Under the pieces are notes generated by a model. It searched no databases. It saw nothing but the letters and a program-made list of their open reading frames with translations, and was not told the origin of the DNA. Shown here in pieces: positions 5,529-34,336 of a stretch of DNA of 34,553 nucleotides. The stretch's first letter is position 1. Each line of letters starts with the position of its first letter. Origin of the DNA: a methanotrophic endosymbiont of Bathymodiolus puteoserpentis (Logatchev) (GTDB lineage: Bacteria > Pseudomonadota > Gammaproteobacteria > Methylococcales > Methylomonadaceae). A program made the position numbers and the translations under genes. Where the stretch lies: contig NZ_FQTQ01000017.1 in the NCBI RefSeq assembly GCF_900128525.1, positions 1 through 34,553 of the forward strand, written 5' to 3'.

Positions 5529-7178
5529 TTAATCTGCCTTACTCAGACCGCGAATAATGAATATGAGTAAGCCAAAAATGAGCCCGACTAATAATCCCCA
5601 TAAAATAAGATGAACATAATCAGGCGCTAGCATGCCGGGATCTTTTTTCCCCCATTGCGGTTTTTCTTTGTTTTGGTAACTGTTAGTCAGTACATCATCT
5701 AAGGCATCTTTACGTATCATGGGCATACCATTAGGGTTTAACATACTTTCGTAAACCATGAGAGCCATATTTCCGCCAGGACTTATACCATCATTGGCCA
5801 CGCCTGTTTCTACATGATCATGAAATAACCAAATTCCCTCGCCATAGCTATGTAGACCATCATTCGTGGTTTGTAAGTGGAGGTCTATACGCTGTGCCGC
5901 CGATAAATTGTAGACATCACGAGTAATTTGCGCGGCTGGGTTTTGTGTAACACCATCATAATCAGTGATTGTCGCTTTATGTCCGTGGATATGGACGGCA
6001 ATACCACTATGCTGGGTGTTAAGTAGGCGCAGCTTAATATTCTCATTAGGTTTAGCGATAATGAGTGAGTCGCGTAGCGTATATGGGAAGGAGTGGCCAT
6101 TTAGCATAAAGTAATTTTCATTGGATTCACTCATATTATAAACGCGGTGCATTTGTTTGGAAATTTCTCTAATATCGTTAGATTCTTGGATGGTTTTTGC
6201 TAAATTTTTATCAATTGATTGGTAGTGTAAATCATATTCTCGGTCATATTTTTCTTTAATAGCCACGGAGGAATAGCGTACCTGTCCTGCGCCAATATTA
6301 AAAGTCTGCACCCAGTTGTTAGGCCGGTTTTCTTCAACCACAAACATACCATTTAAACCCATGAGTAAATGCTTGTCGGTTTGCACATGGCAATGATAAA
6401 GCATCGTACCAGCATGGCGTGGTTGTAATTCATAAGTACGTATAGCACCGGGCATCACCGGTTTTTCACCTGTGATGGGGACGCCATCATTATCTCCTCC
6501 ATTTAGCGTCTGGAATGCATGATCGACGCCATGAAAATGTAGGGTATGCGGGAAGTAGTGGGTATTTTCTAAAGTAATATAAACTTTATCGCCTTGCTCA
6601 ATTCGGATGACAGGTGAGGGGGCTCGTAAAATGGCATTGGCTTTATTTGAACGAAAATTTTTCACGCTCATGCCGCGCAATTTAGGAGAGAAAGCCCACA
6701 TGCCAGGTTGTATGCCTGGGGCAATATCATAAGTTGGAAAGACATTAGGGCTGTCGGGTGTTGCACCATTGAGCTCTAAAACTTCCAATTTAATACGGAT
6801 TATATCAGGGTCTCCATCACCATCTAAATCATCCGATTTAATCAGCGCATCCTCTGCCATATGTGTGTTCATTAAAGTGCGCATAGAGATATTATTCATA
6901 CCTTTAACTGAGGCGGCGATATTATATGGGTTATCAGGTTCGCATAATAAAGACTCTGCCATAGTAACCGCATCAATTGTTTGTGCTGCTCGCCATTCAG
7001 GGTGTTCATCAAGGCAAGGTTTAGTGACAACAAAAGGTTTACTTAGTTGTGGCAGCTGCCCATCAGGTAAATTAATGCCTGCAGTGCGTTGAAAGAACGC
7101 GGGTTGTAACCAAATAGCTAAAGCAATCAAGGTGATAATAACGGGAATAAGGCGGTAATAGAAAACTTTATTAGGCAT
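5529..7178 (-). CDS. Membrane-anchored multicopper oxidase, type 1 copper in the first domain only
   Basis: 549 residues from the ATG at 7178; an in-frame TTG at 7223 would add 15 residues ahead of the N-terminal hydrophobic helix. Residues 1-30 form a membrane anchor or signal, and a second hydrophobic helix lies at the C-terminus (about 521-543). All four His pairs of a trinuclear cluster are present: H214/H216 (LHFHG), H262/H264 (HCH), H396/H398 (HIHGH) and H453/H455 (FHDH). The type 1 set, Cys263 with His270 and Met273, is in domain 1. In domain 2 the equivalent motif is HDH, with no Cys. The N-terminal ~190 residues contain a DLDGDGDPD loop (near 117-125) that may bind calcium. The substrate is unknown. 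Cotranscribed with the cupredoxin downstream. Confidence 0.85.
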   Translation of the reverse strand: MPNKVFYYRLIPVIITLIALAIWLQPAFFQRTAGINLPDGQLPQLSKPFVVTKPCLDEHPEWRAAQTIDAVTMAESLLCEPDNPYNIAASVKGMNNISMRTLMNTHMAEDALIKSDDLDGDGDPDIIRIKLEVLELNGATPDSPNVFPTYDIAPGIQPGMWAFSPKLRGMSVKNFRSNKANAILRAPSPVIRIEQGDKVYITLENTHYFPHTLHFHGVDHAFQTLNGGDNDGVPITGEKPVMPGAIRTYELQPRHAGTMLYHCHVQTDKHLLMGLNGMFVVEENRPNNWVQTFNIGAGQVRYSSVAIKEKYDREYDLHYQSIDKNLAKTIQESNDIREISKQMHRVYNMSESNENYFMLNGHSFPYTLRDSLIIAKPNENIKLRLLNTQHSGIAVHIHGHKATITDYDGVTQNPAAQITRDVYNLSAAQRIDLHLQTTNDGLHSYGEGIWLFHDHVETGVANDGISPGGNMALMVYESMLNPNGMPMIRKDALDDVLTNSYQNKEKPQWGKKDPGMLAPDYVHLILWGLLVGLIFGLLIFIIRGLSKAD

Positions 7179-26419: not shown

Positions 26420-27553
26420 TTATATTTCCCCCTCCGTTAAATAACATCCCGGGTCTTCAGCCCAAGCGTCGCCATAAACTTGTTGTGCGCGCACCCGGGT
26501 ATTACCATTACAAATCGCTTGATAGTGGCATGTTGCGCAACGACCTTTTAACGGGCGGGGAGATTGTTTCATGCCTGCCATAAGCGGATCAGAAATATCT
26601 TGCCAGATTTCTGAAAAAGGGCGTTGTTGTACGTTGCCTAAATCATAATGCCACCAAAATGTATCGGGGTGGACATTGCCTAGGTTATCAATATTAGCGA
26701 CATTAACCCCAGAAGCATTGCCGCCCCATTGTTTGAGTTTGGCTTGAATAGGCTTGGCTTGTGCAGGGAAATGACGTTTTACCCAATGCAAAAAATACAC
26801 GGCATCGGCATCATTATTGCCGGTGACGATTTCTCTATGCAGTCCTTTTTGTTCCCATTCCAGACATTTTTCAAACAGCGTATCCATCACTTCGCGGGTC
26901 ATGGTAAAAAAGGCATCGGTTTTACGATTTTTATTGCCACGGCCGCCATAATTCAAGTGAGATAGGTAAAACTTGTCTAGATTTTCATCATCCATTAATT
27001 GCAACATCGCAGGAAAGTCCTGCACGTTGTCTTGGGTTAATGTATAACGAATGCCTGCTTTAATACCCTGTTTTTGACATAAATGAATACCACGAATCGA
27101 GGCATCAAATGAGCCTTTTTGCTGACGAAATTCATCGTGAGTTGCACCGATACCATCTAAACTAACCCCCACATATTGGTAATTAATCGCGGCTATTTGT
27201 TGAATATTTTGTTCAGTAATTAATGTGCCATTACTGGATAGAGCGACATAAAATCCCATATCGCGTGCGCGTTGAGAAATAGTGAAAATATCGGGGTGTA
27301 ATAAAGGCTCACCACCAGATAAAATCAATACGGGGACTTTAAAGGCTTTTAAGTCATCCATGACTTTGAAAATAGCCTTAGTGCTTAGCTCGCCTGGAAA
27401 ATCAATATTCGCAGATGTGGTGTAGCAATGTTTACAGGTCAGATTGCAGCGGCGGATTAAATTCCAGATGACAACGGGTGCGACTGGCTTGCGTGTAGGT
27501 TTAAGTGGCGTAGGGTGTAGTACTTCACGCATAAACTGACTAAGACGGAACAT
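26420..27553 (-). CDS. nirJ: Heme d1 biosynthesis radical SAM protein NirJ
   Basis: 377 residues. The radical SAM cluster is C36-x3-C40-x2-C43 (RCNLTCKHC). A SPASM-like C-terminal domain holds Cys339, Cys342, Cys348 and Cys370. NirJ removes propionate side chains from 12,18-didecarboxysiroheme in heme d1 synthesis. GGEPLL and GVSLDG support SAM and substrate binding. The start overlaps the upstream siroheme decarboxylase gene by 14 bases, so it is the last gene of the operon, ending before the terminator shared with the tRNAs. Confidence 0.93.
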   Translation of the reverse strand: MFRLSQFMREVLHPTPLKPTRKPVAPVVIWNLIRRCNLTCKHCYTTSANIDFPGELSTKAIFKVMDDLKAFKVPVLILSGGEPLLHPDIFTISQRARDMGFYVALSSNGTLITEQNIQQIAAINYQYVGVSLDGIGATHDEFRQQKGSFDASIRGIHLCQKQGIKAGIRYTLTQDNVQDFPAMLQLMDDENLDKFYLSHLNYGGRGNKNRKTDAFFTMTREVMDTLFEKCLEWEQKGLHREIVTGNNDADAVYFLHWVKRHFPAQAKPIQAKLKQWGGNASGVNVANIDNLGNVHPDTFWWHYDLGNVQQRPFSEIWQDISDPLMAGMKQSPRPLKGRCATCHYQAICNGNTRVRAQQVYGDAWAEDPGCYLTEGEI

Positions 27554-28025
27554 TATTTTTAATCCTTAAGCCGGTTTTTTTCAAGATTCGTGTACTGTAT
27601 AGCACCTCATGTGCGCGACAATATTCGCCAAGTAAGTCGGCTATTTGTTGAATTTGTCGTTCTGCTGCTTCTGCTGTTTTACCATGAATCATGGCAAATA
27701 AATTATATGGCCAATCAGGTAAATGACGAGGCCGGTGGTAGCAATGACTGACAAAACCTAAAGCGCCTACTTTTTTTCCTAGCTCATCAATATGGGCATC
27801 GTTAATATCCCATACGGTCATACCATTATGTTGATAGCCTAATTTGTAATGATTAGGAATGGCTCCAATACGGCGAATAATGCCTTGTTCTTGCATGTCT
27901 GTTAGGCGCTGCATTAATTCATTGACGCTAATATCAATTTGTTCAGCAAGCGTTTGGTACGGTTCGGGGGTTAATGGTAATCCGGCTTGGCTGGCGCTGA
28001 TGATTTTTCGGTCGATATGATCCAT
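27540..28025 (-). CDS. nirL: Siroheme decarboxylase subunit, NirL/NirH type (AsnC-like)
   Basis: 161 residues, with an N-terminal Lrp/AsnC-like helix-turn-helix (DHIDRKIISASQAGLPLTPEPY) and a C-terminal RAM-like ligand domain. The family signatures RRIGAIPNHYKLGY and HCYHRPRHLPDWPYNLFAMIHG identify a CY-x-RPRH-type subunit, the partner of the HNY-x-REH type encoded directly upstream. Despite the fold, these are enzymes that decarboxylate siroheme to 12,18-didecarboxysiroheme. Its ATG overlaps the upstream stop as TAATG. The L versus H label is from memory of family traits and is less sure than the family. Confidence 0.78.
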   Translation of the reverse strand: MDHIDRKIISASQAGLPLTPEPYQTLAEQIDISVNELMQRLTDMQEQGIIRRIGAIPNHYKLGYQHNGMTVWDINDAHIDELGKKVGALGFVSHCYHRPRHLPDWPYNLFAMIHGKTAEAAERQIQQIADLLGEYCRAHEVLYSTRILKKTGLRIKNNVPS

Positions 28026-28468
28026 TAGGCTTCCAGTTTTAAGCCAACAAAGTATTCTTGTATTTTGGGCATGTTATAGACCGTTAATCCGGTTTGAGCT
28101 TCAATTTGGTTAATCACTTGCTGGATTTGTTCGGGTGTTTCAGTGGCGAGAACAAACCACATATTTAATACGTGTTCGCGTGCGTAATTATGTGCTACTT
28201 CTGGAAAGCTGTTAATGATTTCAGCCATCGTGTCATAGTTATCTTGAGGAGCTTTAATGGCCGCCAAAGTAAGAGCGCCCCCCATCTGTTCCGCATGAAA
28301 CATTGGGCCAAAGCGGGATAATATGCCATTATCTAATAATGTTTGTAAGCGCTCAATTAATGCCTGTTCACTGATATTTAAAGTCTTGGCCACTTTTTTA
28401 TAAGGTGAGGGGCAAATAGGAAAGCCTACTTGTAAGGTATTAATAATTGCGCGGTCTATTTCGTCCAT
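28025..28468 (-). CDS. nirD: Siroheme decarboxylase subunit, NirD type (AsnC-like)
   Basis: 147 residues from the ATG at 28468 (MDEIDRAII), the normal length of NirD. A longer in-frame reading from 28594 runs back through a REPIN repeat and is not native. Motifs RFGPMFHAEQMGGALTLAAI and HNYAREHVLNMWFVLATE match NirD as I remember it. It forms one half of a siroheme decarboxylase pair with the next gene, which overlaps its stop. The ribosome site is weak, and the leader between the previous gene and this start is occupied by the repeat. Confidence 0.8.
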   Translation of the reverse strand: MDEIDRAIINTLQVGFPICPSPYKKVAKTLNISEQALIERLQTLLDNGILSRFGPMFHAEQMGGALTLAAIKAPQDNYDTMAEIINSFPEVAHNYAREHVLNMWFVLATETPEQIQQVINQIEAQTGLTVYNMPKIQEYFVGLKLEA

Positions 28469-28485
28469 TATTGCTTTTATGAGGT

Positions 28486-28531
28486 TAGGAGCGACTTTAG
28501 TCGCGATTTTCGTGGCTAAAGCCACTCCCAC
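28486..28531. repeat. REPIN-like pair of palindromes inside the nir operon
   Basis: TAGGAGCGACTTTAGTCGCGA and, inverted, GTGGGAGTGGCTTTAGCCACG meet around TTTT. Each arm is itself a small palindrome, as in REP doublets. It lies between the nirH-type and nirD genes and overlaps the last 12 codons of the former. Confidence 0.75.
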
Positions 28532-29006
28532 GAGGGAAATAAAGCGCACCGCGTTGTTTAAAACAACGACGGCTAAATAAAATATCATGCGCATAATTTT
28601 CTAGTGCGCAGTGTTCGATTAAATAACTTAACTGCTGCAATACTTTCTCGCGGCTTTTGCCATGAATCATACAAAATAAGTTATATGGCCATTGATCACC
28701 GTGACGTGGGCGTTGATAGCATAAATTAATAAAATGAAATTGGCTTATCCGCTGTCCCATTTCATTGATGTGGGTGTCTGGCATATCAAAAACTACCATC
28801 GCATTAGAGCAATAGCCTAGACGACGATGTTTGACAATTACGCCGAGTCGTTTAATTAAACCTTGCTGTTTGAGCTTGCTAAGGCGGGCAATGACTTCGG
28901 ATTCATCTAAATTGAGTTGTTCAGCAATAAGTGCATAAGGGCGTGAAGCAATCGGTAGGCCTTCTTGCACCGCAGCAATTAAGTCTAAGTCTATTGCTTC
29001 TATCAT
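28497..29006 (-). CDS. nirH: Siroheme decarboxylase subunit, NirH/NirL type (AsnC-like)
   Basis: 169 residues. Signatures: AsnC-like N-terminus, KRLGVIVKHRRLGYCSNAMVVFD and CYQRPRHGDQWPYNLFCMIHG. It pairs with the HNYEREH-type subunit upstream, overlapping its stop by four bases (ATGA). Its C-terminal GSGFSHENRD and stop codon are encoded by the REPIN at 28486-28531, so the native C-terminus probably ended shortly after RGALYF. The tail is unlikely to matter for the core fold but marks a past insertion. The G/H versus D/L naming of the pairs is less certain. Confidence 0.75.
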   Translation of the reverse strand: MIEAIDLDLIAAVQEGLPIASRPYALIAEQLNLDESEVIARLSKLKQQGLIKRLGVIVKHRRLGYCSNAMVVFDMPDTHINEMGQRISQFHFINLCYQRPRHGDQWPYNLFCMIHGKSREKVLQQLSYLIEHCALENYAHDILFSRRCFKQRGALYFPRGSGFSHENRD

Positions 29007-29485
29007 GCGTTAATGGGAAAGTTTTCTTCTTGAGGCTCTAAATTAAGTTGAAAACCTAAATTAATAAAATAATCTTTTAGTAAGGGCAATTGCATGGTTT
29101 TAAAGTTTGTTTGTTTTTCTATTTGTTTAATAACATGCGTTAAATGTTGTTGATCATGAGCAATAAGAACAAACCAAAGATTGAAGTGGTGTTCGCGTTC
29201 ATAATTGTGGTTTACTTCGGGAAATTGACTAATTACCTCCGCAACTTCACTTATGTGTTTTTCAGGAATAGCCATAGCAACTAGTGTACTAATGCCGAGT
29301 TGGTTCGGCTGGATAATCGGCCCAATACGACTAATAAAATCCTGCTCTGATAAAGCAGAAAATGCCACCAGTACTTCTTCTTCAGTGATGCCTAAGGAAT
29401 TGGCAATATCCAAATAAGGCGTAGGCGATAGTGGGAAATCCTGCTGATAATCATTGAGTAGTTGCTTGTGTAATATAGTTAGCAT
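29003..29485 (-). CDS. nirG: Siroheme decarboxylase subunit, NirG/NirD type (AsnC-like)
   Basis: 160 residues, first of the four AsnC-like subunits. It has SRIGPIIQPNQLGISTLVAM and HNYEREHHFNLWFVLIA (residues 93-109). It forms a pair with the CY-x-RPRH subunit downstream. The order HNY-type, CY-type, HNY-type, CY-type suggests two ancestral heterodimer pairs, with this first pair less NirD-like than the second. The nirG label is tentative. It starts 24 bases after the antitoxin stop. Confidence 0.74.
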   Translation of the reverse strand: MLTILHKQLLNDYQQDFPLSPTPYLDIANSLGITEEEVLVAFSALSEQDFISRIGPIIQPNQLGISTLVAMAIPEKHISEVAEVISQFPEVNHNYEREHHFNLWFVLIAHDQQHLTHVIKQIEKQTNFKTMQLPLLKDYFINLGFQLNLEPQEENFPINA

Positions 29486-29509: not shown

Positions 29510-29812
29510 TTAAGAATCTGAATTGGCAGTTTTTTTAGTATTCGTATCATACAAGCTACTAGGTACATATTTATGTAAGATGCTACTGACTAATGTCTGA
29601 TAGGGCATGCCTTCCTTTAGGGCTCTTCTTTGCAATGCCGCAAGGTCTCGGTCTAAAATTTCAATTTTAACCTGTTGGCTTTTTTGTAAAGTATGAGCAG
29701 CTGACTGCTGTAAAAACTTCAAGCGCTCAGGTGTAAGCTGAGATTCGAATTTGCCTGACTCAAAAGTCTCTAAAATATCCTGTTCTTCTGAGTTGAGTTG
29801 TATGTTATTCAT
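29510..29812 (-). CDS. CopG/BrnA-type antitoxin of a toxin-antitoxin pair
   Basis: 100 residues. An acidic N-terminal segment (EEQDILETFESGKFES) is followed by ERLKFLQQSAAHTLQKS and a ribbon-helix-helix DNA-binding core, QQVKIEILDRDLAALQRRALKEGMPYQTLVSSILHKYV read in parts. This is the antitoxin that usually stands just after a BrnT-family toxin. The start follows GGGAGTAAGCA, only a few bases after the broken toxin remnant. The gene itself is intact and lies within the nir operon between nirF and nirG. Confidence 0.82.
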   Translation of the reverse strand: MNNIQLNSEEQDILETFESGKFESQLTPERLKFLQQSAAHTLQKSQQVKIEILDRDLAALQRRALKEGMPYQTLVSSILHKYVPSSLYDTNTKKTANSDS

Positions 29813-29991: not shown

Positions 29992-31185
29992 TTACAACCC
30001 CATCTTATGTGCTCGTGAGCTAAAAAAGATACCACTAGGCTTATTGGCAGGCAAGCGGCTTATTTCTTTAAAGCTACTAGTGTCATAAATAATCACTTGA
30101 TTATCGTCGCGTGCAGAAATCCAAACGTTTTTACCGCGAGGAGTAAACTCCATATGTAAAACTGCCTTTCCCGGCGTTAAAGATTTTACTATTTGTAGTT
30201 CCTTAGCATCAATCACTTGTACTTGCGCATTATCAGGGAAAGCAAAATTTACCCAGATTTGCCTACCATCGGGGCGTGCCATTACAAACACGGGCTGACC
30301 AATAACCGGAATGCGTTTAACTAACTGCCAAGTATTTTGATCGACAACTAAAACTTCATGCTGGCCAACGGCAGGTATAAACATTAAGTTGCCCGCCATT
30401 GCCCAGCCTTCTAAATGCGGCATTTTATAGACGGGCATTTTTTCATCATTTTTACCGTAATCGGGCAAAATCCGTTTTACACCTTGTTCGGGAGACCATA
30501 AGTCTAATAAAGCTAAACCACGATCACCAAATAAACCGGCAATATAATAGCGGCCATCAGGCGAGAGCAGAGCATCATAAGGTTGTTTGCCGATATTTTT
30601 GAACTTTTCAATTTTTACTTGTGTGGGGTTTTTAAGGTTAGCAACCCAGATTTCACCGGCATCAAATAAGCTAAAAATAAACTTCTGATCTGGTGCATCA
30701 ACGAGACCAACGACTTTGGATAATTGATTATCACCATATAAAGCAGGAATATCCGCGATTAATTCCAATGTGTCTGAGGAAAAAATTTTTACCCCGCCTG
30801 GCGTGTAGTTAGATACTGCAATCAGCTCGCCATCTTGCGAAATGGCTCCGCCGATACTATTACCCGCTTGAATAATGCGTTGCGTAATTTTGTTTTGTAA
30901 TAAGTCTATTTTAGTTAGTCCACCATCACGACCAAAGATAAAGGCATAACGTGCATCGCGAGAATAAACGATTGATGCATGAGATAAATCTCCTAGCTCT
31001 GTAATTCTGCTGAGACTCTTATTGGTGCTGGTATTGATGAGTTGTATTGCCGCAGGCTCACGTTCAATAATGACGCCTAAATCGCCTGTACCACGTAATT
31101 CAGTGCAGCCAATTTGGCTAAAAATAAGGCTAAGTAGCAGAGGAACTTTGCTAAAAGGCGAGCAAGAGAAAGAGTGTTTAATCAT
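29992..31185 (-). CDS. nirF: Heme d1 biosynthesis protein NirF
   Basis: 397 residues: N-terminal signal with a lipobox-like IGC (Cys27), then an eight-bladed propeller related to the d1 domain of cytochrome cd1. Characteristic sequences include RGTGDLGVIIEREP, YAFIFGRDGGLTKID, AGNSIGGAIS, VVGLVDAP, MPHLEGWAMAG, GQPVFVMARPDGRQIWVNFAFPDN and VLHMEFTPRG. NirF acts late in periplasmic heme d1 assembly. The gene starts four bases after the NirC-like stop and reads into the toxin remnant. Confidence 0.96.
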   Translation of the reverse strand: MIKHSFSCSPFSKVPLLLSLIFSQIGCTELRGTGDLGVIIEREPAAIQLINTSTNKSLSRITELGDLSHASIVYSRDARYAFIFGRDGGLTKIDLLQNKITQRIIQAGNSIGGAISQDGELIAVSNYTPGGVKIFSSDTLELIADIPALYGDNQLSKVVGLVDAPDQKFIFSLFDAGEIWVANLKNPTQVKIEKFKNIGKQPYDALLSPDGRYYIAGLFGDRGLALLDLWSPEQGVKRILPDYGKNDEKMPVYKMPHLEGWAMAGNLMFIPAVGQHEVLVVDQNTWQLVKRIPVIGQPVFVMARPDGRQIWVNFAFPDNAQVQVIDAKELQIVKSLTPGKAVLHMEFTPRGKNVWISARDDNQVIIYDTSSFKEISRLPANKPSGIFFSSRAHKMGL

Positions 31186-31189
31186 AGTG

Positions 31190-31519
31190 TTATCTTAGTA
31201 AAGTCTGAATAAACCAGCGAGTTTCTTGTTCGGTGATAAAAGGTTTCCATGGCGGCATCGCTGTACCTTGGCGGCCATTTTGTATGGTTTCTAGTAAATA
31301 ATCATCTGGTTTATTGACTAAATCTTGAGCTAATAATGACGGGCCGAGCCCACCTTTTAACGTTAACCCATGGCAAGAGCCGCAATCATGTTTCAGCATA
31401 TTGCGTAATTCTTCTTGTCGATTCTGTGACGGGTCAAGCGCAAAAGCAGAGCTTGTACTGAGCAAGCTTAAACTGAATAATAATTGAGCGTGTCGGTTGC
31501 ATGGCCAAAATAGAGACAT
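31190..31519 (-). CDS. nirC: Small cytochrome c, NirC-like
   Basis: 109 residues from the ATG at 31519, which gives a proper signal peptide (LLFSLSLLSTSSAFA). A single heme c site CGSCH is followed by GLTLKGGLGPSL, with a distal methionine in GTAMPPWKPFI. The pattern CGSCHG-x-T-L-K-G-G-L-G-P-S fits cytochrome c55x (NirC), the electron carrier used by NirN or NirS during d1 maturation. It starts one base after the carbonic-anhydrase-like stop. Confidence 0.8.
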   Translation of the reverse strand: MSLFWPCNRHAQLLFSLSLLSTSSAFALDPSQNRQEELRNMLKHDCGSCHGLTLKGGLGPSLLAQDLVNKPDDYLLETIQNGRQGTAMPPWKPFITEQETRWFIQTLLR

Positions 31520-31520
31520 T

Positions 31521-32267
31521 TTATTCCAATATTTTGCGTGCATTAATTGCTTGTAGTGGGCGATTATTGGGCGTATCAATAATATGACCAAAATGTTGAA
31601 TTTGTCCTGCTGCGGCAGTTTGCGGTTGTTTTAAAACTACCCATAAAACATTTTCAGTGCACGGTGGTGTTGTTAATGAGCCATTATACCGGTAATAACT
31701 TAGCTTGTTCGGTAAAAGGCTTTTTGCTGATATGGGCGGTAATTTATTATTTGTTACCCCTGATTTTTCTGGCATTAATGCCCAAATGTCTTTGATTGCC
31801 GGATTTTCCATGCCTTTTGAAAACATAATTGACAGTACAGCTAAATTACCTAATTTATCAATATGTGTTAACTGTGCTTCTAAAGGGTATGATTTACCAT
31901 TGATCTGATTTTCACTTGGTGAGTGAAATTGCAACTGGGTTAATTCATATTTATGGTCATTAATAGATAGCAGGCTACCGCGCTGAAAGTTAACTTGAAT
32001 CGTATGACCATTATTTACAATATCACTAGCATTGGCGTTATAGCGCAAGGTTAGCGGTGCTAGTTTGGCTTTAACAAAATTACTAAGATTAATTGGTGAC
32101 TGTTGAGTGCCTGTAGCACAGGTAGCATAATCAGGACTTAACACGCCCCAGTTTTCAGGTGCTTGCGGTCCAGAGTATGCCCAAGGTGTAGCTTGTTCGG
32201 TTTGATTGATTAGTGCGCATCCTGAACTGAGTAAGCTGAATGCTAAGAGCGTTAATTTTATTTTCAT
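31521..32267 (-). CDS. Alpha-carbonic-anhydrase-like lipoprotein lacking two zinc ligands
   Basis: 248 residues with a lipoprotein signal (LLSSGC, Cys17). The alpha-CA fold signatures are strong: QQSPIN (about residues 55-60), VNNGH (proton-shuttle His88), SPSENQINGKSYPLE, the SLTTPPCTENV loop (with Thr199) and paired Cys50/Cys203. But the first and third zinc histidines are replaced. The normal Q-F-H-F-H is QLQFH here, so Gln113 replaces the first His while His115 is kept. The normal E-A-H is EAQ, so Gln132 replaces the third. Ordinary CO2 hydration is therefore unlikely. It lies between two cytochrome c genes of the nir cluster, preceded by a repeat. Confidence 0.88.
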   Translation of the reverse strand: MKIKLTLLAFSLLSSGCALINQTEQATPWAYSGPQAPENWGVLSPDYATCATGTQQSPINLSNFVKAKLAPLTLRYNANASDIVNNGHTIQVNFQRGSLLSINDHKYELTQLQFHSPSENQINGKSYPLEAQLTHIDKLGNLAVLSIMFSKGMENPAIKDIWALMPEKSGVTNNKLPPISAKSLLPNKLSYYRYNGSLTTPPCTENVLWVVLKQPQTAAAGQIQHFGHIIDTPNNRPLQAINARKILE

Positions 32268-32406
32268 AGGGGGTGTTTCTCGTGCCTGAAATTCTATTTA
32301 CGAATGCACAGTGAGAAGTTATGCTTCGTGAGTGCTGGGTTGGTATTTATCACAGGAGGAGCCAGTAAATAAGCTATAGCGAAATTTAAGTCTTGTATCT
32401 TTAAAT

Positions 32407-32440
32407 AGGGTAGGCAAAAAATCTGCCCACCCTACCTACG
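32407..32440. repeat. Palindromic repeat between cytochrome c and carbonic-anhydrase-like genes
   Basis: Reading GGGTAGGCA...TGCCCACCCTAC, it forms an imperfect hairpin with an A-rich loop, of the GTAGGGTGGGCA type. It occupies the 180-base gap that splits the nir cluster and may act as a partial terminator between the first two genes and the rest. Confidence 0.6.
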
Positions 32441-32447
32441 TCTTATA

Positions 32448-32759
32448 TTAAGGCTTTAAACGGCTATAATAAGATGCAATATTATTAATATCTCGGTCAG
32501 ATAAAGAGCCCGCGATATTATTCATAATCTCGGATACACGAGTCTTATTTCGGTATTGCTTTAAGGCATTTTCCATATATTCTTCATCACGCCCGGCTAA
32601 TGGCGGGAAAGGCGCTTCTGCGCTGGTTTTGCGTATGCCATGGCACTGTGAACAAACCGCTGCGGCTTTAGATTTTCCAGCATAAATACTGGCCGCTTGG
32701 CTCGTCGCATTAATGCTAAAAACTAGTAGCGTTGCGAGTAAATAAGTAAGTAGTTTCAT
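32448..32759 (-). CDS. Cytochrome c (class I, c553/c5-like)
   Basis: 103 residues with a signal peptide (cleavage near QAA). It has one CSQCH heme site, PPLAGRDEEYMENALKQYR and a distal Met in EIMNNIAGSLSD, as in small c553/c4-type electron carriers. It starts five bases after the cd1 stop codon. The position directly after the reductase fits the role of electron donor played by NirM in pseudomonads, but the sequence is not NirM, so I leave it unnamed. Confidence 0.85.
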   Translation of the reverse strand: MKLLTYLLATLLVFSINATSQAASIYAGKSKAAAVCSQCHGIRKTSAEAPFPPLAGRDEEYMENALKQYRNKTRVSEIMNNIAGSLSDRDINNIASYYSRLKP

Positions 32760-32764
32760 TGGTC

Positions 32765-34336
32765 TTACTCCATTTCATCAGGTGATAATCCACGGGTCAT
32801 ATATTTCACACGGCCACGCGAGAAGATACCGGCGGGGCTTTCCATTTGTATAGATCCTGTTTTTTTCAATGAAGTTGAATCGTAAACCACCACTTCATCA
32901 CCGGCATAACCCGCGCTGACATATAAGGATTTACCATCTGCACTATACTCAGGGAAGTAGGCATGACCACCGACATCAAGCGTTTTAACCACTTCTAAGG
33001 TTTTCTTGTCGATTAATTGAATAGTGCGTGCGCGTCTATCTTTAGTAATAATATCCACGGCGACATAAGGTGCATTAGCATGTGCAGCGGGCGATTCTGT
33101 CCCACCAGAAACAGGGACTTGTTTAACCAGTTTCATGGTATCTAAATCCCAAACGCTGACAACAGTTTTATCGCAAGTACCGAAGTTAGTACCAAAACCT
33201 AAAGTACGACCATCAACCTTAACCGCTGCACCTCCACCCACATGAGGTACACAGCCTGCTGGTAGCTTTTTAATAATTTCGCGTTTTTCTAAATCAATCG
33301 CAATGACGGTACTATCATCATACGAGGCAACCATTAATTTCTTGCCTTTATGGGTTAAGAAGGCATCGTGTAAATGACGACCCACATTTTTAATTTTGGT
33401 AACTGGAAAGCCTTCTTGCAAATCAACCACCCAAACTTGGCCAGCATTTTCTAAGGCAATAGCGAAAATATCCGCATATGGCGTACCAATGATCATACCT
33501 GAGTCAGAGCTCACCATTTTGCCGTCAGGGTCAATGCCTTCTAGTTCAAATTGCTTTAAAGGCTCTAAAGTATCTGCATCTAAAATAACGGCATTATGCG
33601 GTACGAAAGAACCCGCCATTAGGTATTTGCCATCGCGGGAGATACCGATACCAGGGCCATTCCAACCCGTTTTAATGCTGCGTACTGCTTGCATGGTATA
33701 TAAATCAACTTTATAAATTTCAGCGGTATCGGTTTTGACATAAGCCCAACGTTCATTAGCTGGGCTAAATTCGATAATATGTGCAGCGGTAACAGTGGGT
33801 ATTACTCCAATTTGTTGGTGTGTTTTACTGTTAATAAAGACGGCTTCTGAACCATTACCGCGACCGTATTTACCACGAGCAGCAACACCGATAATATCGT
33901 CCATGCTATCGATTTTAAAGGTTGGTTTATTCGGTAGTTTTGACTCGTCTTTCACATAAACTTTTAAAGAGGCTTGCATATCTTTAATAGTGAAAGCAGG
34001 GTTGGCTAATTTTGGCGTGCTTTGTAAATGCTTCACCATATCGCGAATATCCTTATCAGATAAACGTCCAAAGAATGGAGGCATTAAGGTTTCAAAGCTA
34101 CCGGTCATAATTAAAGTACGTAAAGCCGTTGGGCTACGACCTTTTAGGGTTTCGGAATTCAATGCTGGGGCTAAATAACCACCATGATCTGCACCATGAC
34201 AACTGGCACAGTTATCTTGATAAAGTTTATGCATTTTATGCTTAGTATCGGTTTCAGCGAACGTGTTTGCGCTAAAGAGTAGGCTGATGCTCGCGGCCAA
34301 AATGGATTTTTTAAGTGTTGTTATTTTTAGTTCCAT
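32765..34336 (-). CDS. nirS: Cytochrome cd1-type protein, probable nitrite reductase (NirS/NirN family)
   Basis: 523 residues: signal peptide (1-27), a heme c domain with C43-x2-C46-H47 and Met85 (TLMPPF), then an eight-bladed d1-binding propeller. The expected proximal heme d1 ligand is His186 (AAHIIEF), and both distal active-site histidines are in place: His365 (CVPHVGGG) and His419 (AAHANAPY). Family NirS reduces nitrite to nitric oxide in the periplasm. It is shorter than typical NirS (about 540-570) and some stretches (GSFVPHNAVILDA) resemble NirN, the d1 dehydrogenase, so NirN is an alternative. As the only cd1 gene seen in a d1 cluster, NirS is more likely. Start ATG at 34336 after TAGGAA. 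Confidence 0.78.
   Translation of the reverse strand: MELKITTLKKSILAASISLLFSANTFAETDTKHKMHKLYQDNCASCHGADHGGYLAPALNSETLKGRSPTALRTLIMTGSFETLMPPFFGRLSDKDIRDMVKHLQSTPKLANPAFTIKDMQASLKVYVKDESKLPNKPTFKIDSMDDIIGVAARGKYGRGNGSEAVFINSKTHQQIGVIPTVTAAHIIEFSPANERWAYVKTDTAEIYKVDLYTMQAVRSIKTGWNGPGIGISRDGKYLMAGSFVPHNAVILDADTLEPLKQFELEGIDPDGKMVSSDSGMIIGTPYADIFAIALENAGQVWVVDLQEGFPVTKIKNVGRHLHDAFLTHKGKKLMVASYDDSTVIAIDLEKREIIKKLPAGCVPHVGGGAAVKVDGRTLGFGTNFGTCDKTVVSVWDLDTMKLVKQVPVSGGTESPAAHANAPYVAVDIITKDRRARTIQLIDKKTLEVVKTLDVGGHAYFPEYSADGKSLYVSAGYAGDEVVVYDSTSLKKTGSIQMESPAGIFSRGRVKYMTRGLSPDEME

What the first reader, a model, noticed from the sequence alone, without database searches (positions are those of the whole stretch)
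31521..32267. Carbonic-anhydrase-fold protein with two zinc histidines lost, inside the nitrite reductase cluster
The alpha-CA scaffold, including proton-shuttle His88, Thr199 and the Cys50/Cys203 pair, is intact, but Gln113 and Gln132 stand where the first and third zinc histidines should be; only His115 remains. Such a protein should not hydrate CO2 normally. Its retention between two cytochrome c genes suggests it does something for nitrite reduction or heme d1 assembly, such as binding a ligand, an anion or a redox partner.
Basis: partly seen in the sequence, partly recalled or inferred. Interest (0 to 1): 0.82.

Follow-up and report, generated by a model that had tools for sequence, protein, structure and literature searches.

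The report
Zinc-less carbonic anhydrase in nitrite-reductase operon
A methane-eating bacterium carries, between its nitrite-reductase genes, a well-preserved carbonic-anhydrase-shaped protein that has lost two of its three zinc-holding residues, so it has probably been reused for a job other than handling carbon dioxide.

Summary
Window 31521-32267 (-) encodes a 248-aa alpha-carbonic-anhydrase (PF00194, 142 bits) lipoprotein with Q-H-Q where zinc ligands His94/His96/His119 belong; shuttle His64, Thr199, Glu106 and the Cys pair are intact. It sits in nirS-nirM-CA-nirC-nirF-nirDLGH-nirJ, its stop 1 nt before the likely nirC start. Two relatives (83-85% identical) share triad, Gln codons and gene position. 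dN/dS is 0.10-0.12. Of 31 columns invariant in 34 His3 relatives, the three changed in all QHQ members (His94, His119, Val121) line the zinc/CO2 pocket. Among 64 readable alpha-CA loci of the family, 59 are HHH and only these three QHQ; 29 of 29 class-level loci read are HHH. The gene is dispensable: relative G006, nested inside the QHQ clade, keeps only a C-terminal scar, and G007 an N-terminal one. Best reading: a bacterial carbonic-anhydrase-related protein (CARP) with a remodelled pocket, kept for a non-hydratase accessory role in the nir system. Partner (NirC/NirF, NirS) and ligand are inferred, not shown. A single His-to-Gln change keeps CO2 hydration in human CA II, so loss of metal and activity needs an assay. 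A second zinc-altered CA (E-H-Q) elsewhere in the family abuts hemCDXY.

The parts
31521..32267 (-). alpha-carbonic-anhydrase-fold lipoprotein with Q-H-Q instead of the zinc His triad (248 aa)
   Evidence: triad and Gln codons shared by two relatives
32217..32267 (-). signal peptide ending in lipobox L-S-S-G|C17, Ala at +2 (lipoprotein; outer membrane by the general Lol rule)
   Evidence: sequence; Cys17 kept in the three QHQ proteins and in family sisters L013-L016; lipobox and sorting rules recalled
31929..31931 (-). codon of Gln113 (CAA), position of zinc ligand His94
31923..31925 (-). codon of His115 (CAC), the one zinc-ligand position kept (His96)
31872..31874 (-). codon of Gln132 (CAG), position of zinc ligand His119
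31866..31868 (-). codon of Thr134 (ACA), position of the CO2-pocket residue Val121
31190..31519 (-). nirC-like monoheme c-type cytochrome; likely ATG 1 nt after the CA stop (TAA-A-ATG); longest frame runs to 31591
29992..31185 (-). nirF-like cytochrome d1-domain protein (heme d1 synthesis)
   Evidence: PF02239, 378 bits
32448..32759 (-). small c-type cytochrome (nirM-like)
   Evidence: PF00034/PF13442
32765..34336 (-). nirS-like cytochrome cd1 nitrite reductase
   Evidence: PF02239 (169 bits) plus cytochrome c domain
32395..32450 (-). strong hairpin just downstream of nirM, between nirM and the CA gene
   Evidence: -24.2 kcal/mol, z -6.4; effect on transcription not tested
27540..29485 (-). 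four siroheme-decarboxylase-like genes (NirD/L/G/H family; which letter is which not tested)
   Evidence: PF22451 and PF17805 in all four
26420..27553 (-). nirJ-like radical SAM protein
   Evidence: PF04055

Best explanation
It is a bacterial carbonic-anhydrase-related protein: a periplasmic, probably outer-membrane-anchored lipoprotein that arose from an ordinary alpha-CA of this methanotroph family, came to lie in the nir cluster, gave up tight zinc binding (His94Gln, His119Gln) and the hydrophobic CO2 seat (Val121Thr, with Thr also at position 91), and is now kept for a non-hydratase accessory role in nitrite respiration. Most likely mechanism: the otherwise intact cone (His64, Asn62, Glu106-Thr199, Thr200, Trp209), now lined by amides and hydroxyls instead of a metal and Val, binds a small polar or anionic ligand or a partner side chain, and works next to the probably co-translated NirC and NirF in the periplasm. 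Shown: sequence, position, co-conservation, purifying selection, remodelling centred on the pocket, dispensability. Inferred: no functional zinc site, no CO2 hydration, ligand or partner binding, link to NirC/NirF, membrane location.
For: Q-H-Q triad in 3 of 3 nir-embedded copies; the other readable family triads were HHH (59), EHQ (1) or HHD (1) out of 64, and 29 of 29 class-level loci read were HHH. dN/dS 0.10-0.12 at dS 0.66-1.00; nirF of the same genomes 0.07. Of 31 columns invariant in 34 His3 homologues, 27 are unchanged, P37 changed in one genome only, and the three changed in all QHQ members are His94, His119 and Val121; shuttle His64 and Glu106-Thr199 are untouched. Long stem (0.41) before a short-branched QHQ group nested among family His3 CAs. 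CA stop and likely nirC start are 1 nt apart in all three. Four PF00484 beta-CA matches in the same genome, two strong, can cover cytoplasmic CO2 hydration. Non-catalytic roles of zinc-less CA folds are known: CARP VIII/X/XI enhance MCT1 (PMC6609565, abstract and passages); Toxoplasma CARP (PMC5437132, passages).
Against: The gene is absent from 11 of 14 genus nir clusters with a readable nirM-nirC junction, two of these with scars, so it is no fixed part of the pathway. Only three genomes carry it; none has expression or biochemical data here. His119Gln alone keeps catalysis in hCA II (PMC8843172 passage), so a weak or different metal site is possible. Operon position may reflect shared expression rather than joint function. 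The structure model is mediocre (best of five pLDDT 63.6, the others 35-44), so pocket geometry rests on homology.
Confidence: 0.55

Rival explanations
1. Cryptic metalloenzyme: Q-H-Q plus water still binds a metal (Zn, or Cu in a copper-rich methanotroph) weakly but usefully, and the protein is a slow hydratase, esterase or Cu-dependent nitrite-handling enzyme.
For: hCA II His119Gln keeps zinc and activity, and eta-CA is proposed to use one Gln ligand (PMC8843172 passages); hCA II His94Asn kept reduced activity (PMC5437132 passage citing Lesburg 1997). Cu-substituted CA II binds nitrite and is proposed to act as a nitrite reductase (PMC7055381 passages). Catalytic residues other than the ligands and Val121 are intact.
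Against: Two of three ligands are changed at once; no Gln2His site was met in the passages read. The CO2 seat Val121 is also changed to Thr. The Toxoplasma protein with two ligands changed showed no activity. A predicted zinc probability already falls to 0.38 for His119Gln alone (Metal3D, PMC10175565 passage).
Confidence: 0.15
2. Passenger or relic: a formerly active CA that entered the nir cluster by chance, lost catalysis, and is on the way out.
For: Scars at the same site in G006 and G007 show repeated loss; no trace in 9 more genus clusters.
Against: dN/dS 0.10-0.12 at high synonymous divergence, no stops or frameshifts, 27 of 31 family-invariant residues unchanged in every member. A decaying enzyme should lose shuttle and gate residues too.
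Confidence: 0.17
3. Proton antenna: the protein buffers or relays protons for NirS (which uses two protons per nitrite) through His64 and surface carboxylates, without needing metal, as proposed for CARPs with MCT1.
For: His64 kept in all three; the non-catalytic antenna role was proposed for CARP VIII/X/XI (PMC6609565).
Against: CA II residue Glu69, named for the antenna, is Asn here, though it is not conserved in CARPs either (PMC6609565 passage). No reason why the zinc pocket should then be remodelled specifically.
Confidence: 0.1

Closest known systems
Bacterial alpha-CAs (Persephonella marina 6IM0, Thermovibrio 4C3T, Neisseria 1KOP) and the family's own His3 CAs L013-L015
   Same: Fold, Cys pair, His64, Glu106, Thr199, export signal; 40-44% (these PDB entries) and 51-54% (family) identity
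   Different: The family CAs keep the His3 zinc site and Val121 and lie outside nir clusters; the PDB entries 6IM0 and 4C3T show His at the zinc positions
Carbonic-anhydrase-related proteins (CARP VIII, X, XI of vertebrates; Toxoplasma TgCA_RP)
   Same: CA fold with one or more zinc His replaced, retained for non-catalytic roles (PMC6609565, PMC5437132; passages)
   Different: Different substitutions and lineage; TgCA_RP is Phe/His/Gln with Lys for His64; [quoted passage not shown] no operon link to cytochrome cd1 known to me
eta-class CA of Plasmodium falciparum
   Same: Gln at the His119 position (PMC8843172, PMC5437132; passages)
   Different: First His kept there; enzyme active
Dioscorin (yam storage protein, 4TWL with ascorbate)
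   Same: CA fold with a small redox ligand in a solved structure (entry title)
   Different: Plant storage protein; 31-36% identity; its zinc residues were not checked here
nir clusters of Pseudomonas/Paracoccus type (nirS, nirM, nirC, nirF, nirDLGH, nirJ)
   Same: Gene content and the NirF/NirC step of heme d1 synthesis (PMC13168839, abstract and two sections or parts read)
   Different: No alpha-CA hit at 1e-30 near nirF in the 64 other nirF-bearing class-level genomes: 47 without a hit, 16 on another contig, 1 over 2 Mb away

Membership tests
alpha-carbonic anhydrase fold (PF00194) | Profile match over the gathering score along the domain | tested here: met
   142.1 bits against cut-off 27, profile 2-250 of 254
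alpha-carbonic anhydrase fold (PF00194) | Predicted fold matches solved alpha-CAs | tested here: met
   The 50 listed Foldseek matches are CAs or dioscorin, best E 1.2e-22, TM 0.66/0.73; model pLDDT only 63.6
Catalytic alpha-carbonic anhydrase (EC 4.2.1.1) | Three zinc-ligand His (94, 96, 119) | tested here: not met
   Q-H-Q in 3 of 3
Catalytic alpha-carbonic anhydrase (EC 4.2.1.1) | Hydrophobic CO2 site including Val121 | tested here: not met
   Thr in 3 of 3; Val in 34 of 34 His3 homologues; role of Val121 from PMC7055381 legend
Catalytic alpha-carbonic anhydrase (EC 4.2.1.1) | Proton shuttle His64 and Glu106-Thr199 gate | tested here: met
Catalytic alpha-carbonic anhydrase (EC 4.2.1.1) | Zinc content and CO2 hydration | not testable with these tools
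   needs purified protein
Carbonic-anhydrase-related protein (CARP) | CA fold with one or more zinc His missing | tested here: met
   definition as in PMC5437132 passage
Carbonic-anhydrase-related protein (CARP) | No CA activity | not testable with these tools
   inferred from ligand loss only
Carbonic-anhydrase-related protein (CARP) | Retained under selection rather than decayed | tested here: met
   dN/dS 0.10-0.12
Conserved component of the heme d1 / nir pathway | Present in most nir clusters | tested here: not met
   Intact in 3 of 18 genus genomes and 3 of 14 genus clusters with a readable nirM-nirC junction; not near nirF in 64 class-level nirF genomes at the limits used

The most novel reading that the evidence does not exclude
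Zinc-less carbonic-anhydrase folds have been recruited more than once in methanotrophs as tetrapyrrole-pathway helpers. The nir copy binds the (di)lactone or carboxylate edge of the heme d1 precursor, or its anionic by-products, in the de-metallated CA cone and passes it to NirF/NirC; a second, independent zinc-altered CA (E-H-Q, Val121Arg) sits right behind hemC-hemD-hemX-hemY in relative G190.
Probability: 0.1. Interest if true: 0.85.

Novelty: new variant of a known kind. Interest (0 to 1): 0.55.

Why it matters
If right, this is a bacterial counterpart of the animal carbonic-anhydrase-related proteins, with a clear evolutionary before-and-after: His3 sisters in the same bacterial family, a pocket-centred burst of change, then conservation beside the genes for the last steps of heme d1 synthesis. 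It offers a simple genetic setting in which to learn what a zinc-less CA fold does, and could expose a facultative helper of cytochrome cd1 or heme d1 maturation in methane oxidisers, which matter for methane and N2O budgets. PMC13168839 leaves open how the heme d1 precursor becomes a dilactone and crosses into the periplasm, the compartment in which this lipoprotein should lie.

Tried and rejected
Other His at the zinc positions by realignment: rejected. Sequencing or assembly error: rejected by two other genomes. Pseudogene: rejected by dN/dS and an intact frame. QHQ CAs in nir clusters elsewhere: none found. Family: 201 genomes searched with both CA (1e-3) and NirF (1e-20); a CA lay near nirF only in G000, G010 and G013. 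Family, 237 genomes, CA alone at 1e-55: no further close orthologue. Class: 369 genomes with CA (1e-30) and NirF (1e-60). These co-location checks were made by eye on contig and position, and many assemblies are fragmented. The one scan of named genome contigs used two short peptide patterns and returned only G010 and G013. Anaerobic FNR-like box TTGAT-N4-ATCAA (motif recalled): 2 hits at one mismatch, 2.59 expected, so nothing. Intergenic 32268-32446 as a mobile repeat: only three short weak matches elsewhere in the genome. His225/His228, conserved in the three proteins and absent from most of the sisters, as a metal or heme site: no evidence, dropped. pdb_via search not available.

Numbers that weaken my reading: the G006 scar scores only E 0.77 with the CA profile (0.002 pairwise) and the G007 scar E 0.004 (0.21 pairwise); both rest on position and strand as well. 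The printed support of the QHQ node in the CA tree is 54 after re-rooting. The hem-linked E-H-Q CA is a singleton without orthologues above 52%, so selection on it cannot be measured. The neighbour control scanned 50 of 54 neighbour ORFs of 28 other family CA loci (27 with HHH read, L011 not recovered by the script); the 31 HHH loci and L029 had no neighbour scan. 19 of the 50 had no Pfam family at 1e-8, so a missed tetrapyrrole gene there is possible; one neighbour (L010) is a MauG-type heme protein, which is not a synthesis gene. In L042 (G135, HHH) hemDXY lie about 4 kb from the CA, on the other strand. Rows dropped from the triad count because they are fragments: second pieces of L211, L212, L214, L217, and L216, L219, L221.

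Full report
What is there. The window (34,553 bases; the whole contig G000:C17 of a 3.23 Mb, 208-contig genome) ends in a nir cluster on the minus strand: nirS (32765-34336), a small cytochrome c (32448-32759), the CA-fold gene (31521-32267), nirC (31190-31519), nirF (29992-31185), a small CopG-antitoxin-like ORF (29510-29812, below Pfam's cut-off), four siroheme-decarboxylase-like genes (27540-29485) and a radical SAM nirJ-like gene (26420-27553). The genome holds a pMMO/AMO-family gene (PF02461, 424 bits), and relative G010 is deposited as a Methylococcaceae MAG, so the host is most likely a gammaproteobacterial methanotroph (placement of that family recalled).

The observation. P0001 (248 aa) matches PF00194 with 142 bits and bacterial CAs in the PDB (best E 2.5e-67). 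Q113, H115, Q132 align with zinc ligands His94, His96, His119. The best of five AlphaFold models from 10 sequences reaches only pLDDT 63.6, but the 50 Foldseek matches listed are carbonic anhydrases or dioscorin. The N-terminus carries a lipobox (LSSGC), with the Cys shared by family sisters.

Conservation. In the 18 genomes of the genus, an orthologue occurs in G010 (83%) and G013 (85%); their contigs match in length the MAG records JAIPFI010000068.1 and JAUVAA010000010.1. Both are QHQ with the same Gln codons and both lie between nirM and nirC. In all three the CA stop and the likely nirC start read TAA-A-ATG. Pairwise dN/dS is 0.112, 0.100, 0.122 at dS 0.66-1.00; nirF of the same three gives 0.069-0.072 and nirS 0.023-0.040.

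How unusual the triad is. In the family, 64 alpha-CA loci could be read at all three positions: 59 HHH, 3 QHQ, 1 EHQ (G190), 1 HHD (G017) (33 loci, 31; fragments were left out, and L011 was not recovered). In the class sample, the 29 homologous loci read are all HHH; 70 of 369 genomes, the window's own included, had a hit at 1e-30, and only the best loci were returned. The whole held family (237 genomes) has no further close orthologue.

Where the change happened. Of 31 alignment columns invariant in 34 His3 homologues (5 family, 29 class), the three changed in all QHQ members are His94, His119 and Val121; one further column (P37) changed in one genome. Val121 is one of the residues that hold CO2 (PMC7055381 figure legend). 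Position 91, on the same wall, is Thr in the three (Lys or Leu in 29 of the 34). The CA tree nests the QHQ group beside the family's His3 CAs L013-L015, with a stem of 0.41 substitutions per site and short tips (support printed for the QHQ node 54 after re-rooting). So the pocket was altered on a fast stem and then held, as expected for a new role and not for decay.

Gain and loss. Fourteen genus clusters show a readable nirM-nirC junction: three with the CA, two with scars, nine without a detectable trace (G005 and G017 are incomplete there, G016 gave only a fragment and G008 no nir hit). G006: 15 codons (DNQPLPAINARKILK, 73% identical to the CA C-terminus) end at the same stop just before nirC; an in-frame ATG inside this remnant could serve nirC, whose TAAAATG start reads TAAAATA there (inference from the sequence). 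G007: an N-terminal piece with signal, lipobox and the HWDYTG motif (E 0.004 with the CA profile). These two were the best non-orthologue hits among 701 translated fragments and are on the sense strand in the right place. In a tree of NirF, NirS, NirM and NirJ, G006 is sister to G010 inside the QHQ group (ultrafast bootstrap 94; four-genome clade 96), so G006 most likely lost a QHQ gene secondarily; G007 lies in another clade, so a CA stood at this site earlier or arrived twice. The gene is therefore useful but dispensable.

Function. Four beta-CA matches (PF00484, two strong and two weak) exist in the genome and this is its only PF00194 match. The neighbours tell the compartment and the step: NirF and NirC act in the periplasm and together turn the dilactone of 3,8-dideoxo-dihydro-heme d1 into dihydro-heme d1 with oxygen from water; how the dilactone forms is unknown (PMC13168839; abstract, introduction and part 2 of the results read). 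A CA-fold lipoprotein probably co-translated with nirC is well placed to help there or at NirS, but most genus clusters do without it. Two facts limit the claim of inactivity: His119Gln in hCA II retains activity and the eta-CA is proposed to use Gln (PMC8843172 passages), and His94Asn retained reduced activity (PMC5437132 passage citing Lesburg 1997; the original paper was not read). Two ligands at once plus Val121Thr make normal hydration unlikely, but it must be measured.

A parallel. The E-H-Q alpha-CA of G190 lies right behind hemC-hemD-hemX-hemY on the same strand. Neighbour ORFs of 28 other family CA loci (50 of 54 scanned, 19 without any Pfam family) gave no tetrapyrrole-synthesis family, and the HHD gene of G017 is not next to one by eye. 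Two of two lineages with two altered ligands beside tetrapyrrole genes against none of 28 is suggestive (1 in 435 by hand, post hoc, HHD left out), but G190 is a singleton and the control covers only part of the family's CAs.

Literature. Searches for CA with nirS/nirC/cytochrome cd1, for acatalytic CAs and bacteria, for CARPs and for Methylobacter nir clusters listed no title or abstract start on a zinc-less CA in a nir cluster or on a bacterial CARP; each listing showed only its top 10-20 rows. Six papers were opened: PMC13168839, PMC10175565, PMC7055381, PMC8843172, PMC5437132, PMC6609565. PMC5437132 (2017) states that CARPs were known from vertebrates, insects, nematodes and viruses.

Verdict. 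Observation confirmed; interpretation partly supported. New variant of a known kind: a CARP-like protein in a bacterium, in an operon context for which I found no report, with mechanism open.

Noticed in passing
L044:8231-9136 (-), genome G190:C79: A second zinc-altered alpha-CA (E-H-Q, Val121 to Arg) lies directly downstream of hemC-hemD-hemX-hemY on the same strand; nearest relatives (52%) are HHH and it has no close orthologue in the family.
   Followed up: partly
L078:7827-8282 (+), and the nirC-nirF gap of L079, L082, L083, L085, L086, L087: Seven genus relatives carry a CreA-like periplasmic protein between nirC and nirF (PF05981, 172 bits on L078; the others by eye), a slot that is empty in the window; a different facultative nir accessory.
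   Followed up: partly
window 32395-32450 (-): A strong hairpin right after nirM (z -6.4); G006 has one at the same place with a different sequence (z -5.8), G010 and G013 weaker (z -2.0, -1.5). Possible terminator or processing site splitting nirSM from CA-nirCF.
   Followed up: partly
window 29510-29812 (-): A 100-aa ORF between nirF and the NirD-like gene resembles CopG antitoxins, below Pfam's cut-off (18.4 against 28 bits).
   Followed up: no
L085 around 6167-6696 (G009): The nirM-nirC gap of G009 holds two short ORFs that look like a toxin-antitoxin pair (by eye from the sequence), so this gap seems prone to insertions.
   Followed up: no
L007:1111-1992 (+), genome G017: An alpha-CA with Asp in place of His119 (H-H-D) near tpiA- and secG-like sequence (names by eye).
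   Followed up: no
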